From a virus: 20,574 nt of DNA. Location of the stretch: positions 1-20,574 of the IMG/VR virus record IMGVR_UViG_3300029448_000560; one strand, 5' to 3'. Shown piece after piece: positions 3,143 through 16,878 of the stretch. The notes under the pieces were generated by a model. It was not told the DNA's origin. It did not search any database and saw only the letters and a list, made by a program, of their open reading frames with translations. Each line of letters begins with the position of its first letter. Within the stretch, counting starts at the first letter, position 1. Made by a program: the position numbers and the translations under genes.

Positions 3143-3155
3143 CAGAAAGGAACAA

Positions 3156-3335
3156 ATGAAAACATACATATGCAAAGCATACGTTGGAGTGCTAGTTGAA
3201 GCTTCGGATGAATTCGAAGCGGAGCAACTGGCAGGACTAGAGATGGACATAGGAGACATCGACTGGGAGGCTGAAGAGGCTGACCCAGATCATGACTACT
3301 TCACTACACTACAAAACTACACAATATTAAAATGA
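3156..3335 (+). CDS. Small acidic hypothetical protein, 59 aa
   Basis: The reading frame begins ATG at 3156 with AGAAAGGA just upstream and ends overlapping the next ATG at 3332. The product starts MKTYICKAYVGVLVEASDEF and is strongly acidic (about 17 Asp and Glu in 59). A beta strand followed by the DEFEAEQLAG helix is reminiscent of short phage proteins with a beta-alpha fold. The product of the next gene has a similar strand-then-NEQEAIDKV pattern, so the two may be distant relatives; that is inference. Confidence 0.7.
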   Translation: MKTYICKAYVGVLVEASDEFEAEQLAGLEMDIGDIDWEAEEADPDHDYFTTLQNYTILK

Positions 3336-4336: not shown

Positions 4337-4699
4337 ATGCAGGAACTAAACGTATATCCAGAAGGGGGGGCAAACTTTTTAGAGCCCGATGCAGTGGTGT
4401 CCGTGATCAAAGGGGACATCACTCAGGAAAAAATGGTGTCGCAGTTAGAAACTGGCGACGTTTACACAACTAAGATCAAGAGACAGATGCACAAGCGCAC
4501 TGTCAAGCAGTGCATAGAAGAAATGATATCGAAGAGGGTTTCGATTACATATAAGTTCTTCCCTTGCACTTACTTAGTCATAACGCATCTCATGAAAGGA
4601 GAGATACTCAACTTCCCGATTGAGGAAGATTTGGATGTAGATGACATTCAATACATATTTAATTATGTATTGGACTGCATCCAAGAAGACGAGCTTTGA
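4337..4699 (+). CDS. Hypothetical protein, 120 aa
   Basis: The ATG at 4337 follows the terminator T tract by only 3 nt and has no clear ribosome site. A longer frame from a TTG at 4265 would have to read through the terminator hairpin, so I reject it. The protein contains a basic patch (TTKIKRQMHKRTVKQCIEEM, about residues 44-63), a hydrophobic FFPCTYLVITHLM segment and an acidic tail. A seven-G run early in the gene is a potential slippage site. Family unknown. Its TGA overlaps the next ATG at 4699. Confidence 0.65.
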   Translation: MQELNVYPEGGANFLEPDAVVSVIKGDITQEKMVSQLETGDVYTTKIKRQMHKRTVKQCIEEMISKRVSITYKFFPCTYLVITHLMKGEILNFPIEEDLDVDDIQYIFNYVLDCIQEDEL

Positions 4700-7471: not shown

Positions 7472-7921
7472 TTGAAATACATATCACAGAACAAGCTAAA
7501 AGCTTGGAGAGAAAATCAAGCTCCAAAGAAGTGTCCCATCAGCCAAGCTGAGATGCATGACAATGTAGTTGATCATTGTCACTGCACTGGCGAAATACGC
7601 GGTGTATTGCACAGGCAGAGCAATGCATTCCTGGGGAAGGTCGAGAACGCATGGAAGCGCTACGCATGCAGAAGTGCAAATGTTTCATTGCCCGAAGCTT
7701 TACGCAGAATGGCTGATTACATTGAGTTCAGTTGCACAGGTTTATTGCATCCCGTGGGAGCCAACCAATTGCAGAAAAAATTCGAAAGAAAAAAAACTGA
7801 AGATCAGTTGAATATTTTACTTGACCTCGGTGTAGACGTTGCCAGCATTGATGCTAGTAACTCGGACAAGAGGTCCAAGTTATACAGAAAACAAATAACC
7901 AAAATAGGCTATGAGCCATAA
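7472..7921 (+). CDS. Endonuclease VII-like nuclease (T4 gp49 family), 149 aa
   Basis: The VVDHCHCTGEIRGVLHRQSN block (about residues 32-51) followed by AFLGKVEN matches the His-Me finger core of endonuclease VII: D34-H35 then R43-G44 and N51 near the end of the metal site. T4 gp49 resolves Holliday junctions and branched DNA before packaging, and 149 residues is close to its length. In the zinc-knuckle positions only C21 is present where a CxxC would be expected, and the second pair is replaced by HRQS, so this is a zinc-poor variant. The start is a TTG without a strong ribosome site. The last 11 nt overlap the ERF-type gene. Confidence 0.85.
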   Translation: MKYISQNKLKAWRENQAPKKCPISQAEMHDNVVDHCHCTGEIRGVLHRQSNAFLGKVENAWKRYACRSANVSLPEALRRMADYIEFSCTGLLHPVGANQLQKKFERKKTEDQLNILLDLGVDVASIDASNSDKRSKLYRKQITKIGYEP

Positions 7922-8366
7922 TATTAAACAAAAACTACAAGGGATTCAGTCATCCCTCAAAGCCCCCAAGGGGCAGACCAATAAGTTCGGAGGGTATAAA
8001 TATCGCTCCTGTGAGGACATCCTAACTGCAGTAAAACCTTTACTCGCGGAGTGGAGTTGTTCAATATCAATCTCAGACGATATGGTTGAGGTAGGTTCTA
8101 GAGTATATGTAAAATCAATGGTGCATCTGTATGATTCAGATTCCGCTGACTTCATAACCTCTCAAGCCTTTGCCAGGGAAGCAGAGAACAAGAAGGGCAT
8201 GGATGATGCCCAAATCACTGGCTCCGCCAGTTCATACGCAAGAAAATATGCGCTCAACGGATTGTTTGCTATTGACGATACAAAAGATCCAGACGCTACT
8301 AATAAGCACGAGAAGGTGACAGAACCATCTCCGTCCAATTCTAAAAACACAGAGGATTTATTCTAA
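7911..8366 (+). CDS. erf: ERF-family single-strand annealing protein, 151 aa
   Basis: The ERF superfamily signature is clear: FGGYKYRSCEDILTAVKPLL (residues 26-45), beta strands through VGSRVYVKSMVHLYD, then GMDDAQITGSASSYARKYAL (96-115) and NGLFAIDD. ERF proteins anneal complementary single strands for phage recombination and genome circularisation, usually alongside an exonuclease; the RecB/Cas4-like gene upstream is the natural partner. The C-terminal 25 residues are a Ser/Pro/Thr-rich linker ending in TEDLF, a short acidic-aromatic tail. The start ATG overlaps the endonuclease gene by 11 nt; next gene follows after 2 nt. Confidence 0.9.
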   Translation: MSHNIKQKLQGIQSSLKAPKGQTNKFGGYKYRSCEDILTAVKPLLAEWSCSISISDDMVEVGSRVYVKSMVHLYDSDSADFITSQAFAREAENKKGMDDAQITGSASSYARKYALNGLFAIDDTKDPDATNKHEKVTEPSPSNSKNTEDLF

Positions 8367-13200: not shown

Positions 13201-14006
13201 ATTTCATTCTGGAACTTGTAGTAACCCTCTCTTGAACCTGCACCAACTCTTTTTGCTGGAGCAATATAATTCATTGCCTTCTTGAAGGTTGATCTAAATG
13301 GAGCAAGAATGCCTTTTTCTCCAGACGCAATGTCATTGGCTATGAACTCTCTTTGGAGCCTGTCCTTGGTCTTTAGGATTTGCCTTTGGGTAGCCTCCTT
13401 GCCCAAGACGGGCTCAAGAATTTCAGAAACTGTTTTATTGTCCAGTCTGTCCGTTGCTATTAACTCATCTATTTCATCTGCCCTCTTTCCTGCCAGGGCA
13501 TGCGCCGTGCTGAAGTATTTCGCATCAACCCTTCCAAGGATGTTACCAAGACCTCCACCAGTTGCTCCAGCAATAGCAATGTCCTCTACCTTTACCTCTC
13601 CTGTATCAAGATAATCGCCAAGGGTTCTTTCTCCTGCAGCAAGACCAGCACCCCTTATGGTTGCATCTCTTACTGGATTGACACCCCTGTTCTTAAAAGA
13701 AAACGAATTAGCAACGCCTGCAGCCAGGACTCTTCCCAGTTCTATATCGGTTGGGTCATCCTTGGTCATGAGTCCACGGACCCCCTTTTTGTCCTCAAAA
13801 GCTGTTTGAGCTGTTAAACTACCAACAGCGCCAGATATAAATCTAACAGCGGGTCTAAACAGAGACAATCTGCCCTTCAATAGACTAGCGGCTATTTCTC
13901 CCCCTACGCCAGCAACTACTTCCGTGCCTGCGGATTGCGCAACCTGCGGCCCAGTAAGGGGAAGTCTTTCTTCCTCTTCCTCCTCCTTGATTTCTTCAGG
14001 ATCCAT
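10287..14006 (-). CDS. Very large virion/polyvalent protein, 1239 aa
   Basis: The protein starts MDPEEIKEEEEEERLPLTGP. The N-terminal 150 residues are Gly/Ala-rich with weakly hydrophobic helices. A long charged coiled-coil-like part (about 190-480) contains a segment IKIKDHMPGPAERRFLGEVT. A middle part carries YNPASYMVNGIGGVMAALG (about 588-606), TDSATRYTIWKSNQDFLKG (about 697) and LPPFVTFTLEFFRNTVNQVR (about 767). A Gly/Ala hydrophobic stretch (about 825) and a charged C-terminus follow. The middle motifs recall large polyvalent or LPD38-like phage proteins; this is memory-based. The hydrophobic helices and last position in the virion gene block suggest an internal or ejected protein. Start overlaps the previous stop by 1 nt (TAATG). 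Confidence 0.7.
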   Translation of the reverse strand: MDPEEIKEEEEEERLPLTGPQVAQSAGTEVVAGVGGEIAASLLKGRLSLFRPAVRFISGAVGSLTAQTAFEDKKGVRGLMTKDDPTDIELGRVLAAGVANSFSFKNRGVNPVRDATIRGAGLAAGERTLGDYLDTGEVKVEDIAIAGATGGGLGNILGRVDAKYFSTAHALAGKRADEIDELIATDRLDNKTVSEILEPVLGKEATQRQILKTKDRLQREFIANDIASGEKGILAPFRSTFKKAMNYIAPAKRVGAGSREGYYKFQNEMQRAESLSTKLEASITQATLRNEALRDDITDFMNGGEMTERLAKDAIAGDLHESRNIEMTAIKRLYKLFEENDELSLLPKESREVIMDRMQQEIDRGHRMYDTSVYKAFVDKKWSDNAKRRAAAIEEVTASVTRKRKEQGQDISDPKIEEKINAEVDSHFKHLESMFAKDSRLNQKALIATLPGRFEIKIKDHMPGPAERRFLGEVTAGVQRAGFQSKYRIRDSIRHQAKIESNLSVLRAVQSTNQVRYTKEPGYTEFNLPGMAGIDADGRQMYVPAETAHAISKLYEAEFTEQMVEGTAGFVNKVGGSLVAYSKAAKVIYNPASYMVNGIGGVMAALGNGVNIFRRSDGRFDYAKGFALASAEVGDIKKATKLATAESRQKLIADLNEMYEYGIGNASIAASEVAAALKNGQVGGTLSRLTQTMGKVYNVTDSATRYTIWKSNQDFLKGLQKKGVSFGANAEEATQAIKRIAATITNDTYQNYQRTSRLGKYLSRRGILPPFVTFTLEFFRNTVNQVRFAGKMTRGESFLKDFDLELPQEGANKVLNALRAEGAKRYGALGAALAVSAGAGSLMAPTFKFVFDGAAGDPLEGSKEKDDFAFFGFSYMRDKDFAATLDKETKKGTFAMTSYLFPHATVTQFMSALYDSVVGGTENQYETTKTLSGLIAEELMGEGTFVNQNVMRAIDNRDIYGEKISTAEGYESMKERLSYAIGKTFEPGVMREGLKFADAIQGQGDYTFGEVLMRQAGARLTKIDFNQMAIRRVQDFSERYSDARGNYTTDYKYKFLENKISEDDINRSYNKSIESAEKAFDRIEEAYSRLDSLGYSVDEKIEVLKRGNVRSADIFRIAKGMPFKPFAKGVVESTQEKYDQRIAGKTEQESKSYIKRMSKSPDRSDRVLAEKFFAEFNRRKDNVRRDRTKLDLLLLNLNAADRAALIIEMGHHTDPKLVHQYKRKGIISVGVNDILRASR

Positions 14007-15694
14007 TATAGCGGTTCAGGTGTTCCTACGCCAGCAACTCCTGAAATGGGATCACCGTATCTATCAAACATGGGCTTTTGGATAGCAATTTCATACATAT
14101 AGGTTCTGTATAGATCGTCTTTCTCCTGTTTAGTGTATCGTCTTCCAGTATCTGGATTCACTTCAGGGAGCCTAGATATAATGTCATTAACAACTTGCTG
14201 ATTGTATTCGAACTTAGTTGGGTCGTCTTTTTCTGCGGTCCTAAGAGCATCTAACTCAAGTTGCTTTTGCTCGACGACGTTGCCAAGCAATCCAGCCTTG
14301 GACTGCTCCCTCATTGCAGGATCAGGATATGCCTTGCGTCTTTGTGCGTCGGTCAATCCGTCTTTACCTACAGAAGCCTGACCTCTTCGGACTTCATTGA
14401 AGTCTGGCTTGGCGGCAAGTCTAGCTTCACGATCCCTGGATGCTTGCTCAAAAGATCCACCTCCTGCTTGGCTAGGTGCTGCTCGGGAACTTGATCTGTC
14501 CTGCAAGAATGCATCACGGCTGTATCCAGTCTCGGGGTCAAACGTAGTGCCCATGCTTTGAGCCATTGCCTGACCTTGAGCTATTTCTTGCTCCGTAAGC
14601 GGACCCTGCTCTAGCCTTTTAAGGAAATTTGCTTGAGGGCTGTTCTCCTGTGCGGACTGCGGTATCGCACCGCGAGAAGCTATACTCTGGATGGCTCTTT
14701 GTTGAGCTGCCCTTTCTTCTTGCTTGCGCTGTCCTTCCATTGCATTGAACCTAGCTGCTGTGTTCGCATCCCCGTAAGCTACATTGCCTTCAGTATCAAT
14801 GAAAGGTTTCAGTCCTGGTGCTCGCTCTCCAGATATAAAGGGGTTGCCCTGCTCTGCTTGCTGGGCTTCTAGTCGATTCAAATCCTCCATGGATATCTCT
14901 TGCGTCTGAGTAGCCATTGGGTTTTCAGCCGTTGGAGCCCTTACTATGCCCATTGTCCCTGGGTCTCCGCCTTCCTCTAGTGGGGGAAGCGTGTATGCGC
15001 CCAGTGCTGTTCCTGGTGCAGCCATTTGCTCATCGGTGAATTGTTCACCTCTTGGAGCTAGTGCCTCTGCTGTGGTCTTAGGTGTTTCAAATGGAACTGG
15101 AGCCTGCTCGGGTATAGGAGCTTGGGCTACTGAAGCTGGAACTGTTGGAACTGTTGGAACTTCTGGAACTGTTGGAACTTCTGGAACTGTTGGAACTTCT
15201 GGAGCTGCTGGAGCTGCTGGAGCTACTGGGTCAGAAGGTAGATCCGCGGAGGGGTTTCTTTCGTATCCTAAAATACGTCCGTTTCTGGCTCTAATTGGCT
15301 TAAGGGGATTGAATCCCCTAGCAATAAGATCTTTTTCTTCGTCCGTCATTGCGCTTTGACCTGTGCCGCCTGAAGCCATTTCGTAACCCTCAGCTATTTT
15401 ACCGCTGAAATCAAACTGATTATCCAAGGCGTTTCCAACGGTGTATCCCGCTGTAAACGCTGCGGCTTTAGGCATACCAAGAACCGTTGCACCCCTGCTC
15501 AAAATAGGAACTGCGGTCTTTGCTCCAACAATGGCAGGAATTCCCAAGCTTGCTGCTGTCCCAGCAGTAAGATTTTCGTCCGCAAACTTTTCAACGGCTC
15601 CACGCTTGTCTACTTCACCTAGCAAAGCATCTTGGTTTCTCTGAGTTCTTAACTCGTTGGATCTTTGCCTTCTATTATTCCTTCTATCAGTCAT
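14006..15694 (-). CDS. Probable virion-associated protein with Pro-rich repeats, 562 aa
   Basis: The product begins MTDRRNNRRQRSNELRTQRN and is basic at first. Residues 40-90 form a Gly/Ala/Ile-rich, possibly membrane-interacting segment (TAASLGIPAIVGAKTAVPIL). Then comes a Pro/Val/Thr/Glu repeat (about 155-187), and a long low-complexity Gln/Ala/Glu-rich region of predicted disorder and helix. Large, low-complexity, partly hydrophobic phage proteins next to tail genes are often internal or ejected proteins, and I infer that here. Ribosome site upstream is weak; in the spliced transcript the upstream stop is only 7 nt away, so coupling could supply initiation. Family is not recognised. Confidence 0.65.
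   Translation of the reverse strand: MTDRRNNRRQRSNELRTQRNQDALLGEVDKRGAVEKFADENLTAGTAASLGIPAIVGAKTAVPILSRGATVLGMPKAAAFTAGYTVGNALDNQFDFSGKIAEGYEMASGGTGQSAMTDEEKDLIARGFNPLKPIRARNGRILGYERNPSADLPSDPVAPAAPAAPEVPTVPEVPTVPEVPTVPTVPASVAQAPIPEQAPVPFETPKTTAEALAPRGEQFTDEQMAAPGTALGAYTLPPLEEGGDPGTMGIVRAPTAENPMATQTQEISMEDLNRLEAQQAEQGNPFISGERAPGLKPFIDTEGNVAYGDANTAARFNAMEGQRKQEERAAQQRAIQSIASRGAIPQSAQENSPQANFLKRLEQGPLTEQEIAQGQAMAQSMGTTFDPETGYSRDAFLQDRSSSRAAPSQAGGGSFEQASRDREARLAAKPDFNEVRRGQASVGKDGLTDAQRRKAYPDPAMREQSKAGLLGNVVEQKQLELDALRTAEKDDPTKFEYNQQVVNDIISRLPEVNPDTGRRYTKQEKDDLYRTYMYEIAIQKPMFDRYGDPISGVAGVGTPEPL
15135..15228 (-). repeat. In-frame tandem repeat encoding Val-Pro-Thr/Glu units
   Basis: A 9-nt unit, arranged partly as an 18-nt higher-order period (GGAACTGTT then GGAACTTCT on the plus strand), recurs about ten times and ends in Ala-Pro units. 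It encodes PEVPTVPEVPTVP-type residues in the 562-residue protein. Period is a multiple of three, so copy changes keep the frame. It likely forms an extended linker. Confidence 0.85.
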
Positions 15695-15701
15695 TATTGC
15701 A

Positions 15702-15742
15702 TTATATCATATCAGTTGTGCTTGTGCAGTTCATAAATCCAA
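15702..15742 (-). other. Proposed short 3' exon of the 258-residue gene
   Basis: After splicing at TTGCCT (16113) to TTGGATTT (15742), the frame continues Phe-Gly-Phe-Met-Asn-Cys-Thr-Ser-Thr-Thr-Asp-Met-Ile and stops at TAA 15704-15702, giving about 268 residues in total. The stop context TAATGCAATAATG is nearly the same as TAAGTCAATAATG between the 449- and 247-residue genes, which supports this as the native gene end. Exact 3' splice base is uncertain by 3-6 nt. Confidence 0.6.
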
Positions 15743-16084
15743 CTACCGCGCATAGCAAGCCATCGTGGTTTTCGATGGTTTGGCGAGCCTTACGCCTCCC
15801 CAAAGCTTTCGCTCGGGGGAGGTTTCGTACGTCGCTCCAGCGGTTTGGCGCATTGTGTTATCGCTGCGGTTCTTTATCTGCAGCTTCTGCATGTTACCAT
15901 GCAGTTCAGACTATCTCTTCATCTTTCGATGCAGGGCGCTCGTGGGCAAATTACCGTCCGTTCTGGACTCGTCACCTAGTCGTTGCACCTTCTCGGCATT
16001 CCTGCCTGAGCTTGGCTCAGGATTGTCCCATTGGGAGTTCCCCTGAATTCACCCTGTATTGCCCTTTTAGGCAGTTGGATTTAT
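15733..16084 (-). repeat. 12-nt inverted repeat near the two intron ends
   Basis: ATAAATCCAACT at 16084-16073 (minus strand) is perfectly complementary to AGTTGGATTTAT at 15744-15733. The first copy is in the P1 loop just upstream of the guide sequence, and the second spans the proposed 3' splice junction. It could act as an extended P10-like pairing that aligns the 3' exon, or as a competing structure. Confidence 0.75.
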
Positions 16085-16112
16085 TAAACTGTCAAAGAAA
16101 ATTAGTATATAA
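15743..16112 (-). ncRNA. ORF-less group I self-splicing intron (subgroup IA-like)
   Basis: Positions 15705-16101 hold no leftward protein gene but a group I ribozyme core. P1 pairs exon TTGCCT (16118-16113) with guide GGGCAA (16064-16059), giving the conserved U.G at the 5' splice site. P3 is 16056-16050 with 15938-15932. P4 joins CAGG (16045) to CCTG (16018); P5 is TCCC/GGGA (16036-16026). The Q-type box TCCTGAGCCAAGC, R-type box GCAACGACTAG (15986-15976) and S-type box AAGAGATAGTCT (15919-15908) form P7. P8 is CATC-GAAA-GATG (15931-15920). P9 is a 7-bp stem with GTAA loop (15904-15887). An extra hairpin GTCC/GGAC between P7 and P3 strands suggests subgroup IA. The 5' end is well fixed; the 3' end (ωG at 15743, 15746 or 15749) is inferred from frame. 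No homing endonuclease inside. Confidence 0.9.
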
Positions 16113-16878
16113 AGGCAAAGAACCAAACATCGCATTCCTCAACCTGTCTTTTTACACCGTCTGGTACATCTTTTGTGCCCTTGTATTGTTGTATTATTGA
16201 ATGCGCATTGTCTCTTACCACTGGTTGGTATCCAGCCCACATCCATGCTACTATAGCAAGGTTCCACCTTTGATCGCATTCAGCTAATTTAACCAAGGAA
16301 GTGTCTTGATACCTTGCTAGGAATTCATCTATACCAGAGGATAATTGAGCCATGTCGGCGCTGGACGGAGTCCAAAAAAAACTTGGATCGGAGTCGCCTA
16401 AAATAAACCCACAAGTGTCTCCCCTACCATCATTTTCAAACGGCTTTGGGTTTCCGCAAAACATTCCCCTGGAGCCGTATAGATAGTAAGGAACTACATG
16501 AATGTGGAACCTGTATCTAGTGAATGCGCTTTTTAAATCCGAGTTAGCAAGCATGGTTCGAATACTTCCACCCTTGTGCTTGTAATAACCTCCCAGGTCT
16601 CCGAACCTCTTTGTCTTGTGCTTGTGATCTGGATTGGAGGTATCTATTGAATTCAATTTAGACGGATCGATATCATTCCATCGTATAATTCTTGTGCAAT
16701 AATGCATATACTTTTTAACTTTACTCGTTCCATCATGCCCCAGGGCTTCAACCCCAGGAAAGTTCGCTGGATTATTTTGCACTGTTGATTTAATGGATGT
16801 AGTCATTCTTGGAAGACCATCCACGAAAGGGACAGGAGCAAGTTTATCCGCTTTGCTGTTGGGGAACCAATTAGCCAT
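16102..16878 (-). CDS. Hypothetical structural-block protein interrupted by a group I intron, 258 aa unspliced
   Basis: The unspliced frame gives 258 residues from MANWFPNSKADKL to WFFAFIY, the last codons being read into the intron. The spliced product keeps residues 1-255 and gains about 13 residues from the 3' exon. The protein is soluble, with aromatic-rich segments (YRFHIHVVPYYLYGSRGMF around 123-141, FFWTPSSADMAQLSSGIDEF around 167-186) and DQRWNLAIVAWMWAGYQP near the C-terminus. No known family is recognised. Its start lies one nt after the stop of the 247-residue gene (TAAAATG), and it sits among virion-type genes, so a tail or head-tail role is possible. Unspliced RNA would leave a 407-nt gap before the next gene. 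Confidence 0.75.
   Translation of the reverse strand: MANWFPNSKADKLAPVPFVDGLPRMTTSIKSTVQNNPANFPGVEALGHDGTSKVKKYMHYCTRIIRWNDIDPSKLNSIDTSNPDHKHKTKRFGDLGGYYKHKGGSIRTMLANSDLKSAFTRYRFHIHVVPYYLYGSRGMFCGNPKPFENDGRGDTCGFILGDSDPSFFWTPSSADMAQLSSGIDEFLARYQDTSLVKLAECDQRWNLAIVAWMWAGYQPVVRDNAHSIIQQYKGTKDVPDGVKRQVEECDVWFFAFIY

What the first reader, a model, noticed from the sequence alone, without database searches (positions are those of the whole stretch)
15743..16112. Compact group I intron without homing endonuclease in a phage structural-block gene
All core helices P1, P3, P4, P5, P7, P8 and P9 pair on the minus strand, P1 carries the U.G splice-site pair with a 6-bp guide (extending to 8 bp into the intron), and P8 and P9 have GNRA-type loops. 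The intron sits at the extreme 3' end of a 258-residue gene with no known family, an unusual insertion site; many described phage introns interrupt nucleotide-metabolism, polymerase, lysis or photosystem genes.
Basis: partly seen in the sequence, partly recalled or inferred. Interest (0 to 1): 0.8.

Follow-up and report, generated by a model that had tools for sequence, protein, structure and literature searches.

The report
Short self-splicing intron beside phage gene
This uncultured phage carries a genuine short self-splicing RNA intron without a homing enzyme, but it probably ends about 108 bases earlier than first proposed and may interrupt a folded non-coding RNA rather than a protein gene; a sister phage carries in the same intron a tiny tmRNA-like molecule of a kind known to block the host's ribosome-rescue system.

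Summary
The intron is real: RF00028 matches window 16108-15887(-) at 86.9 bits, E=2.9e-21. It is td/Sfi21-like, about 218-262 nt, with no homing endonuclease gene. Five of six calibrated phage introns align their last G to window 15851, within GAUAACACAAUG, identical to the Enterococcus phage Pumpjack polA intron, whose intronless alleles are known. Identity to the only relative (L001) falls from 96% to 72% there.

The 5' site is undecided. A nearer site (16069|16068) is thermodynamically favoured and places the intron inside a rod-like RNA whose arms (16091-16070 / 15747-15727) pair over 15 contiguous bp and continue across the predicted junction. I prefer the near site at about 0.5.

If so, it interrupts a non-coding structured RNA; a 2014 review stated that all phage introns then known lie in protein-coding genes. 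No intronless allele was found.

L001's intron also holds, in its P5 loop, a 66-nt tmRNA tRNA-like domain without mRNA domain. Similar TLD-only RNAs occur in dozens of viral contigs; none of 30 loci checked lies in an intron.

The parts
15851..16068 (-). Preferred extent of the group I intron (218 nt; RF00028 match covers 16108-15887)
16060..16073 (-). Near P1 hairpin: UGCCU (16073-16069) / GGGCA (16064-16060), loop AAAA; 5' splice site 16069|16068
   Evidence: C instead of U at 16069 in L001
16113..16118 (-).
16050..16056 (-). P3 5' strand CAGGGUG (3' strand CGCCCUG 15938-15932)
15977..15981 (-). P7 5' strand GACUA (3' strand UAGUC 15913-15909)
16026..16036 (-). P5 UCCC/GGGA; in L001 this loop holds the 66-nt tmRNA-like domain
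15920..15931 (-). P8 CAUC-GAAA-GAUG
15887..15904 (-). P9 CUGCAUG-GUAA-CAUGCAG
15863..15884 (-). P9.1 GCUGC-(AGAUAAAGAACC)-GCAGC, loop motif shared with Pumpjack and P7571 introns
15851..15862 (-). Terminal motif GAUAACACAAUG with omega G at 15851; 3' splice site 15851|15850
16070..16091 (-). 5' arm of the exon rod, CAGUUUAAUAAAUCCAACUGCC
15727..15747 (-). 3' arm of the exon rod, GGUAGUUGGAUUUAUGAACUG
15748..15850 (-). Structured domain after the 3' splice site (not conserved as coding)
16102..16878 (-). 258-aa gene, no known family
14006..15694 (-). 562-aa gene downstream

Best explanation
A compact, homing-endonuclease-free td/Sfi21-like group I intron (minus strand, most likely 16068-15851, 218 nt) that removes itself by the usual two guanosine-initiated transesterifications. 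It most likely lies in a transcribed, folded non-coding segment between the 258-aa and 562-aa genes, not in a coding exon. The two exon arms (16091-16070 and 15747-15727) form a long stem; in the ligated RNA that stem continues across the junction (GCC.U|CGC with GCG.C.GGU), so exon pairing would hold the two splice sites together, as the anticodon stem does for bacterial tRNA introns. Shown here: the core, the 3'-end homology, the pairing, the absence of an ORF. Inferred: splicing itself, the choice of 5' site, and any role of the rod RNA (stable RNA, RNase III site or spacer).
For: Core: RF00028 at 86.9 bits. 3' site: five of six calibrated introns align their last G to 15851; the Pumpjack junction is calibrated by 758 phage records that encode the ligated sequence uninterrupted. 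Identity to L001 falls from 0.96 (16068-15851) to 0.72 plus indels (15850-15748) at that base. Exon rod: 15 contiguous pairs in the window, 0 of 2000 shuffles as long; spliced RNA z = -7.2 and -4.7 in the two genomes; one G.U to G-C change in the stem and one hairpin pair changed on both sides and kept. Near P1 with the rod is 8.5 (window) and 9.2 (L001) kcal/mol better than the far P1 (pseudoknots not counted). The domain after the 3' site differs between genomes by indels that are not multiples of three.
Against: In L001 the base at the near 5' site is C, not U (CUGCCC|AAAA), breaking the U.G rule; exceptions are rare (15 of 883 tmRNA introns have -1 C, there paired with A, PMC11915505). 16112-16069 is as conserved (43/44) as the intron itself and no 44-nt window of gene 258 is that conserved, which suggests an intron start at 16112. 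The P1 loop would be only 4 nt. No P10 forms with CGCC. The L001 helix alone (12 contiguous pairs) is matched by 40 of 2000 shuffles. No other copy of the rod RNA was found, so its reality rests on two genomes.
Confidence: 0.48

Rival explanations
1. Same ribozyme and same 3' site (15851|15850), but the 5' site is the reader's, 16113|16112: a 262-nt intron whose 5' exon is the end of gene 258. Splicing removes the FIY-stop end and adds a different tail.
For: U.G kept in both genomes (UUGCCU and UUGCUU with GGGCAA); identity jumps from 0.74 to 0.98 at 16113/16112 and falls at 15851/15850, so both edges of the conserved block would be the splice sites.
Against: Leaves the 22-bp pairing between the P1 loop and an exon segment 104 nt downstream unexplained; far P1 is 8.5-9.2 kcal/mol worse and competes with the near hairpin; the added tail is open in the window but frame-shifted with an early stop in L001, with no third-position bias in its first changes.
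Confidence: 0.2
2. One reading: intron 16112-15743 (370 nt), with the 103-nt domain as a peripheral extension after P9.1, a very long P10 between the P1 loop and exon 2, and a 13-codon coding exon 2 (GFMNCTSTTDMI).
For: Frame open in both genomes with the same stop 4-8 nt before the next gene, fitting the tight gene spacing of the operon; U.G in both; explains the complementarity as P10.
Against: The terminal motif with omega G is conserved at 15851 and would have no use; the splice site would lie inside a continuous 15-bp helix that runs on both sides of it; a P10 of this length is not known to me; the conserved stop overlaps a promoter-like TATAAT.
Confidence: 0.2
3. A decayed group I intron or ribozyme relic that no longer splices; the segment stays in the transcript and gene 258 simply ends at 16102.
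For: No transcript evidence; -1 C in L001 if the near site is right; the ORF ends with an identical FAFIY-stop in both genomes; L001 tolerates a 66-nt insert in P5.
Against: Core and terminal motif are 96% conserved between phages whose gene 258 differs by 18% in nucleotides, changes sitting mostly in peripheral stems.
Confidence: 0.12

Closest known systems
Enterococcus phage Pumpjack polA intron (PV544176) and Streptococcus thermophilus phage P7571 terL intron
   Same: Same P9, P9.1 with AUAAAGA loop and terminal GAUAACA..AAUG; same type of core
   Different: Those interrupt conserved codons of polymerase or terminase genes; an HNH endonuclease gene lies in the Pumpjack intron
T4 td-type introns; Pseudomonas phage K5 and Vibrio phage qdvp001 introns
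   Same: IA-type core with a P7.1/P7.2-type insertion and a UGAACACAA-type 3' end
   Different: Two hairpins after P9; inserted in coding genes
Bacterial tRNA and tmRNA group I introns
   Same: Intron in a structured RNA whose exon stem overlaps P1 (if the near site is right)
   Different: The host RNA here is not a tRNA or tmRNA (ARAGORN on spliced forms finds nothing); it is phage-borne
TLD-only tmRNA of mycobacteriophage DS6A (for the insert in L001)
   Same: tRNA-like domain without mRNA-like domain; a similar molecule inhibits tmRNA (PMC4131195, PMC11915505)
   Different: In L001 it sits in the P5 loop of a group I intron; absent from the window

Membership tests
Group I intron (RF00028) | Conserved core P3-P8 with the P7 guanosine-binding helix, covariance score above gathering | tested here: met
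   86.9 bits against 50, E=2.9e-21
Group I intron (RF00028) | P1 with U.G at the 5' splice site | tested here: inconclusive
   Two candidates: the near one is U.G in the window but C-G in L001, the far one is U.G in both
Group I intron (RF00028) | Terminal guanosine (omega G) after P9.0 | tested here: met
   GAUAACACAAUG| aligned with calibrated introns
Group I intron (RF00028) | Self-splicing with exon ligation | not testable with these tools
   No transcripts or assay available
Phage td/Sfi21-like IA introns | P7.1/P7.2-type insertion, P9.1 AUAAAGA-type loop, shared 3'-end motif | tested here: met
   subgroup named by similarity, no phylogeny made
[quoted passage not shown]
   No intronless allele found; the exon from 15850 is not conserved as coding, one from 15742 could be
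Self-mobile homing intron | Encoded homing endonuclease | tested here: not met
   No ORF of 50 aa or more on the minus strand inside

The most novel reading that the evidence does not exclude
A self-splicing intron that interrupts a phage-encoded structured non-coding RNA, where exon pairing positions the splice sites; in the sister phage the same intron has become the carrier of a TLD-only tmRNA decoy inserted in its P5 loop, so that a selfish intron delivers a possible anti-ribosome-rescue RNA.
Probability: 0.3. Interest if true: 0.75.

Novelty: new member of a known kind. Interest (0 to 1): 0.45.

Why it matters
A 2014 review noted that all phage group I introns known then lay in protein-coding genes although phages carry many tRNA genes (PMC3984707). 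A clear case in a phage non-coding RNA would break that rule and point to a phage structured RNA worth studying in its own right. The relative with a TLD inside the intron is a natural test of whether introns ferry functional small RNAs. The correction of the 3' end also changes what any RT-PCR test should look for.

Tried and rejected
tRNA or tmRNA as the host RNA: ARAGORN on the window and on near- and far-spliced forms of both genomes finds nothing. Other Rfam families in 15500-16400: only chance-level matches. Homologues of the exon RNA: none in phages by blastn, none beyond L001's own contig in IMG/VR and none in GTDB contigs by motif, none in more distant phages of the group by covariance model. 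Intronless allele of gene 258: not found in phages or IMG/VR; the gene at the same place in L004 (198 aa) is not detectably related. Host: not found in GTDB genomes. P1 elsewhere upstream: the exhaustive scan gives only the near and far pairings as credible in both genomes. Terminal inverted repeats of a mobile element: the arms resemble them, but no target-site duplication was seen by eye and no further copy turned up; not pursued. A first TLD pattern was one base off and did not recover the L001 element; corrected. A first hand translation of far-spliced L001 was cut one base early; the corrected frame also stops early.

Full report
Observation. Rfam's group I model covers window 16108-15887 on the minus strand with 86.9 bits (gathering score 50), full model length, E=2.9e-21. 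P3 (CAGGGUG/CGCCCUG), P4, P5, P6, P7 (GACUA/UAGUC), P8 with a GAAA loop and P9 with a GUAA loop are there, with a P7.1/P7.2-type insertion between P7 and P3. There is no minus-strand ORF of 50 aa or more inside.

Relatives. Gene 258 has no family in PHROGs or Pfam and no match in 50,697 phage records. In IMG/VR it has one relative, contig IMGVR_UViG_3300038520_002359 (L001), 78% identical in protein, with the same intron in the same place. The phage group is otherwise uncultured. The 1239-aa protein is 25% identical to one of Phage C75C1, which has the same large gene beside a divergent DnaB helicase gene. No host was found.

3' end. I fetched related phage introns whose splice sites can be calibrated from the genes they interrupt. 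In Enterococcus phage Pumpjack the junction is AACCCU|AAACAG ... GAUAACACAAUG|AAUUUA, giving SASNP|NLQQQP. 758 phage records encode that stretch uninterrupted, 45 of the matching records at 99% identity or more. The window has the same P9.1 loop motif (AUAAAGA) and the same GAUAACACAAUG, ending at 15851. Semi-global alignment of five of six calibrated 3' ends (Pumpjack polA, P7571 terL, qdvp001 terL, RCIP0039 polA, Valrath polA) puts the terminal G at 15851 in the window and at 6074 in L001. The sixth, K5, has an extra hairpin and aligns elsewhere. The calibration of the non-Pumpjack introns rests on my reading of conserved protein motifs across the junction. Identity to L001 is 0.96 over 16068-15851, apart from 67 inserted bases in L001, and drops to 0.72 with indels from 15850. 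I conclude that 15850-15743 is probably not intron.

5' end. For the far site: U.G holds in both genomes; 16112-16069 is 43/44 identical to L001, at the intron's rate, and no 44-nt window of gene 258 is that conserved. For the near site: with the core held, near P1 is 8.5 and 9.2 kcal/mol better than far P1 (pseudoknots not modelled). The sequences on either side of the near-site intron form one long stem, 16091-16070 with 15747-15727, 15 contiguous pairs in the window (0 of 2000 shuffles as long; the L001 helix, 12 pairs, is reached by 40 of 2000). In the ligated RNA the stem continues over the junction as CGC/GCG. The spliced RNA folds at z=-7.2 in the window and z=-4.7 in L001. Two pairs differ by a one-sided compatible change and one hairpin pair by changes on both sides; with two sequences this is thin. 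Against the near site: L001 has C at the -1 position.

With exon 2 starting at 15742 the frame stays open in both genomes (FAF|GFMNCTSTTDMI and FAF|GFINCTNTTNMI), with the same stop 4-8 nt before the next start codon. But the stop overlaps a promoter-like TGATATAAT with a -35-like TGCACA, both unchanged between the genomes. The site would also lie in the middle of a continuous helix, 108 nt beyond the conserved terminal motif.

Mechanism. Inferred from the family: guanosine attacks the 5' site in P1, the freed 5' exon attacks after the terminal G, and the exons are joined. If the near site is right, the exon stem holds the two sites together, as the anticodon stem does in bacterial tRNA introns. 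What the rod RNA does is unknown; a stable small RNA, an RNase III processing site, or a spacer before the next gene's promoter are all open.

The sister intron. In L001 the P5 loop holds a 66-nt RNA that scores as tmRNA (49.8 bits, gathering score 47): acceptor stem with G3.U70, T arm, CCA end, no mRNA-like domain. A pattern scan of IMG/VR found dozens of similar mini-TLDs in other viral contigs. In 30 loci scanned with Rfam none lay in a recognisable group I intron. TLD-only tmRNA is known from mycobacteriophage DS6A, and a similar molecule inhibits tmRNA, perhaps by titrating SmpB (PMC4131195; PMC11915505).

Novelty. As an intron it is a new member of a known kind. A 2014 review states that all phage group I introns known then were in protein-coding genes (PMC3984707). 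A 2025 study of Bastillevirinae again finds them in core genes, while noting Twort orf142, a tail tube gene (PMC11878797). A non-coding location would be new, but it is not proven here because no intronless allele and no transcript are available.

Noticed in passing
L001 5827-5892 (IMGVR_UViG_3300038520_002359): A 66-nt tmRNA tRNA-like domain without mRNA-like domain (G3.U70, CCA end) inserted in the P5 loop of the sister intron; the window has the empty P5 loop.
   Followed up: partly
L064, L065, L068, L069, L071, L073, L075, L079, L088, L091, L093, L097, L103, L107, L121, L134, L140 and others: Dozens of TLD-only tmRNA-like genes (about 62-70 nt) in other viral contigs, some in tRNA clusters; they resemble the DS6A decoy. 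A second class of about 80 nt also occurs.
   Followed up: partly
window 15728-15701 (-): Promoter-like TGCACA / TGATATAAT ending 6 nt before the start codon of the 562-aa gene; both hexamers unchanged in L001, suggesting a near-leaderless transcript.
   Followed up: no
window 16126-16112 and 15671-15657 (-): 15-nt, 93% complementary pair between the 3' end of gene 258 (far 5' exon) and the start of gene 562; by eye only partly kept in L001.
   Followed up: no
window 4475-4690, 3151-3290, 7835-7974: Other segments fold unusually stably (z about -6), inside predicted coding regions.
   Followed up: no
L093 9494-9696, L149 11617-11846: RAGATH-24 RNA matches in viral contigs that also carry mini-TLDs.
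   Followed up: no
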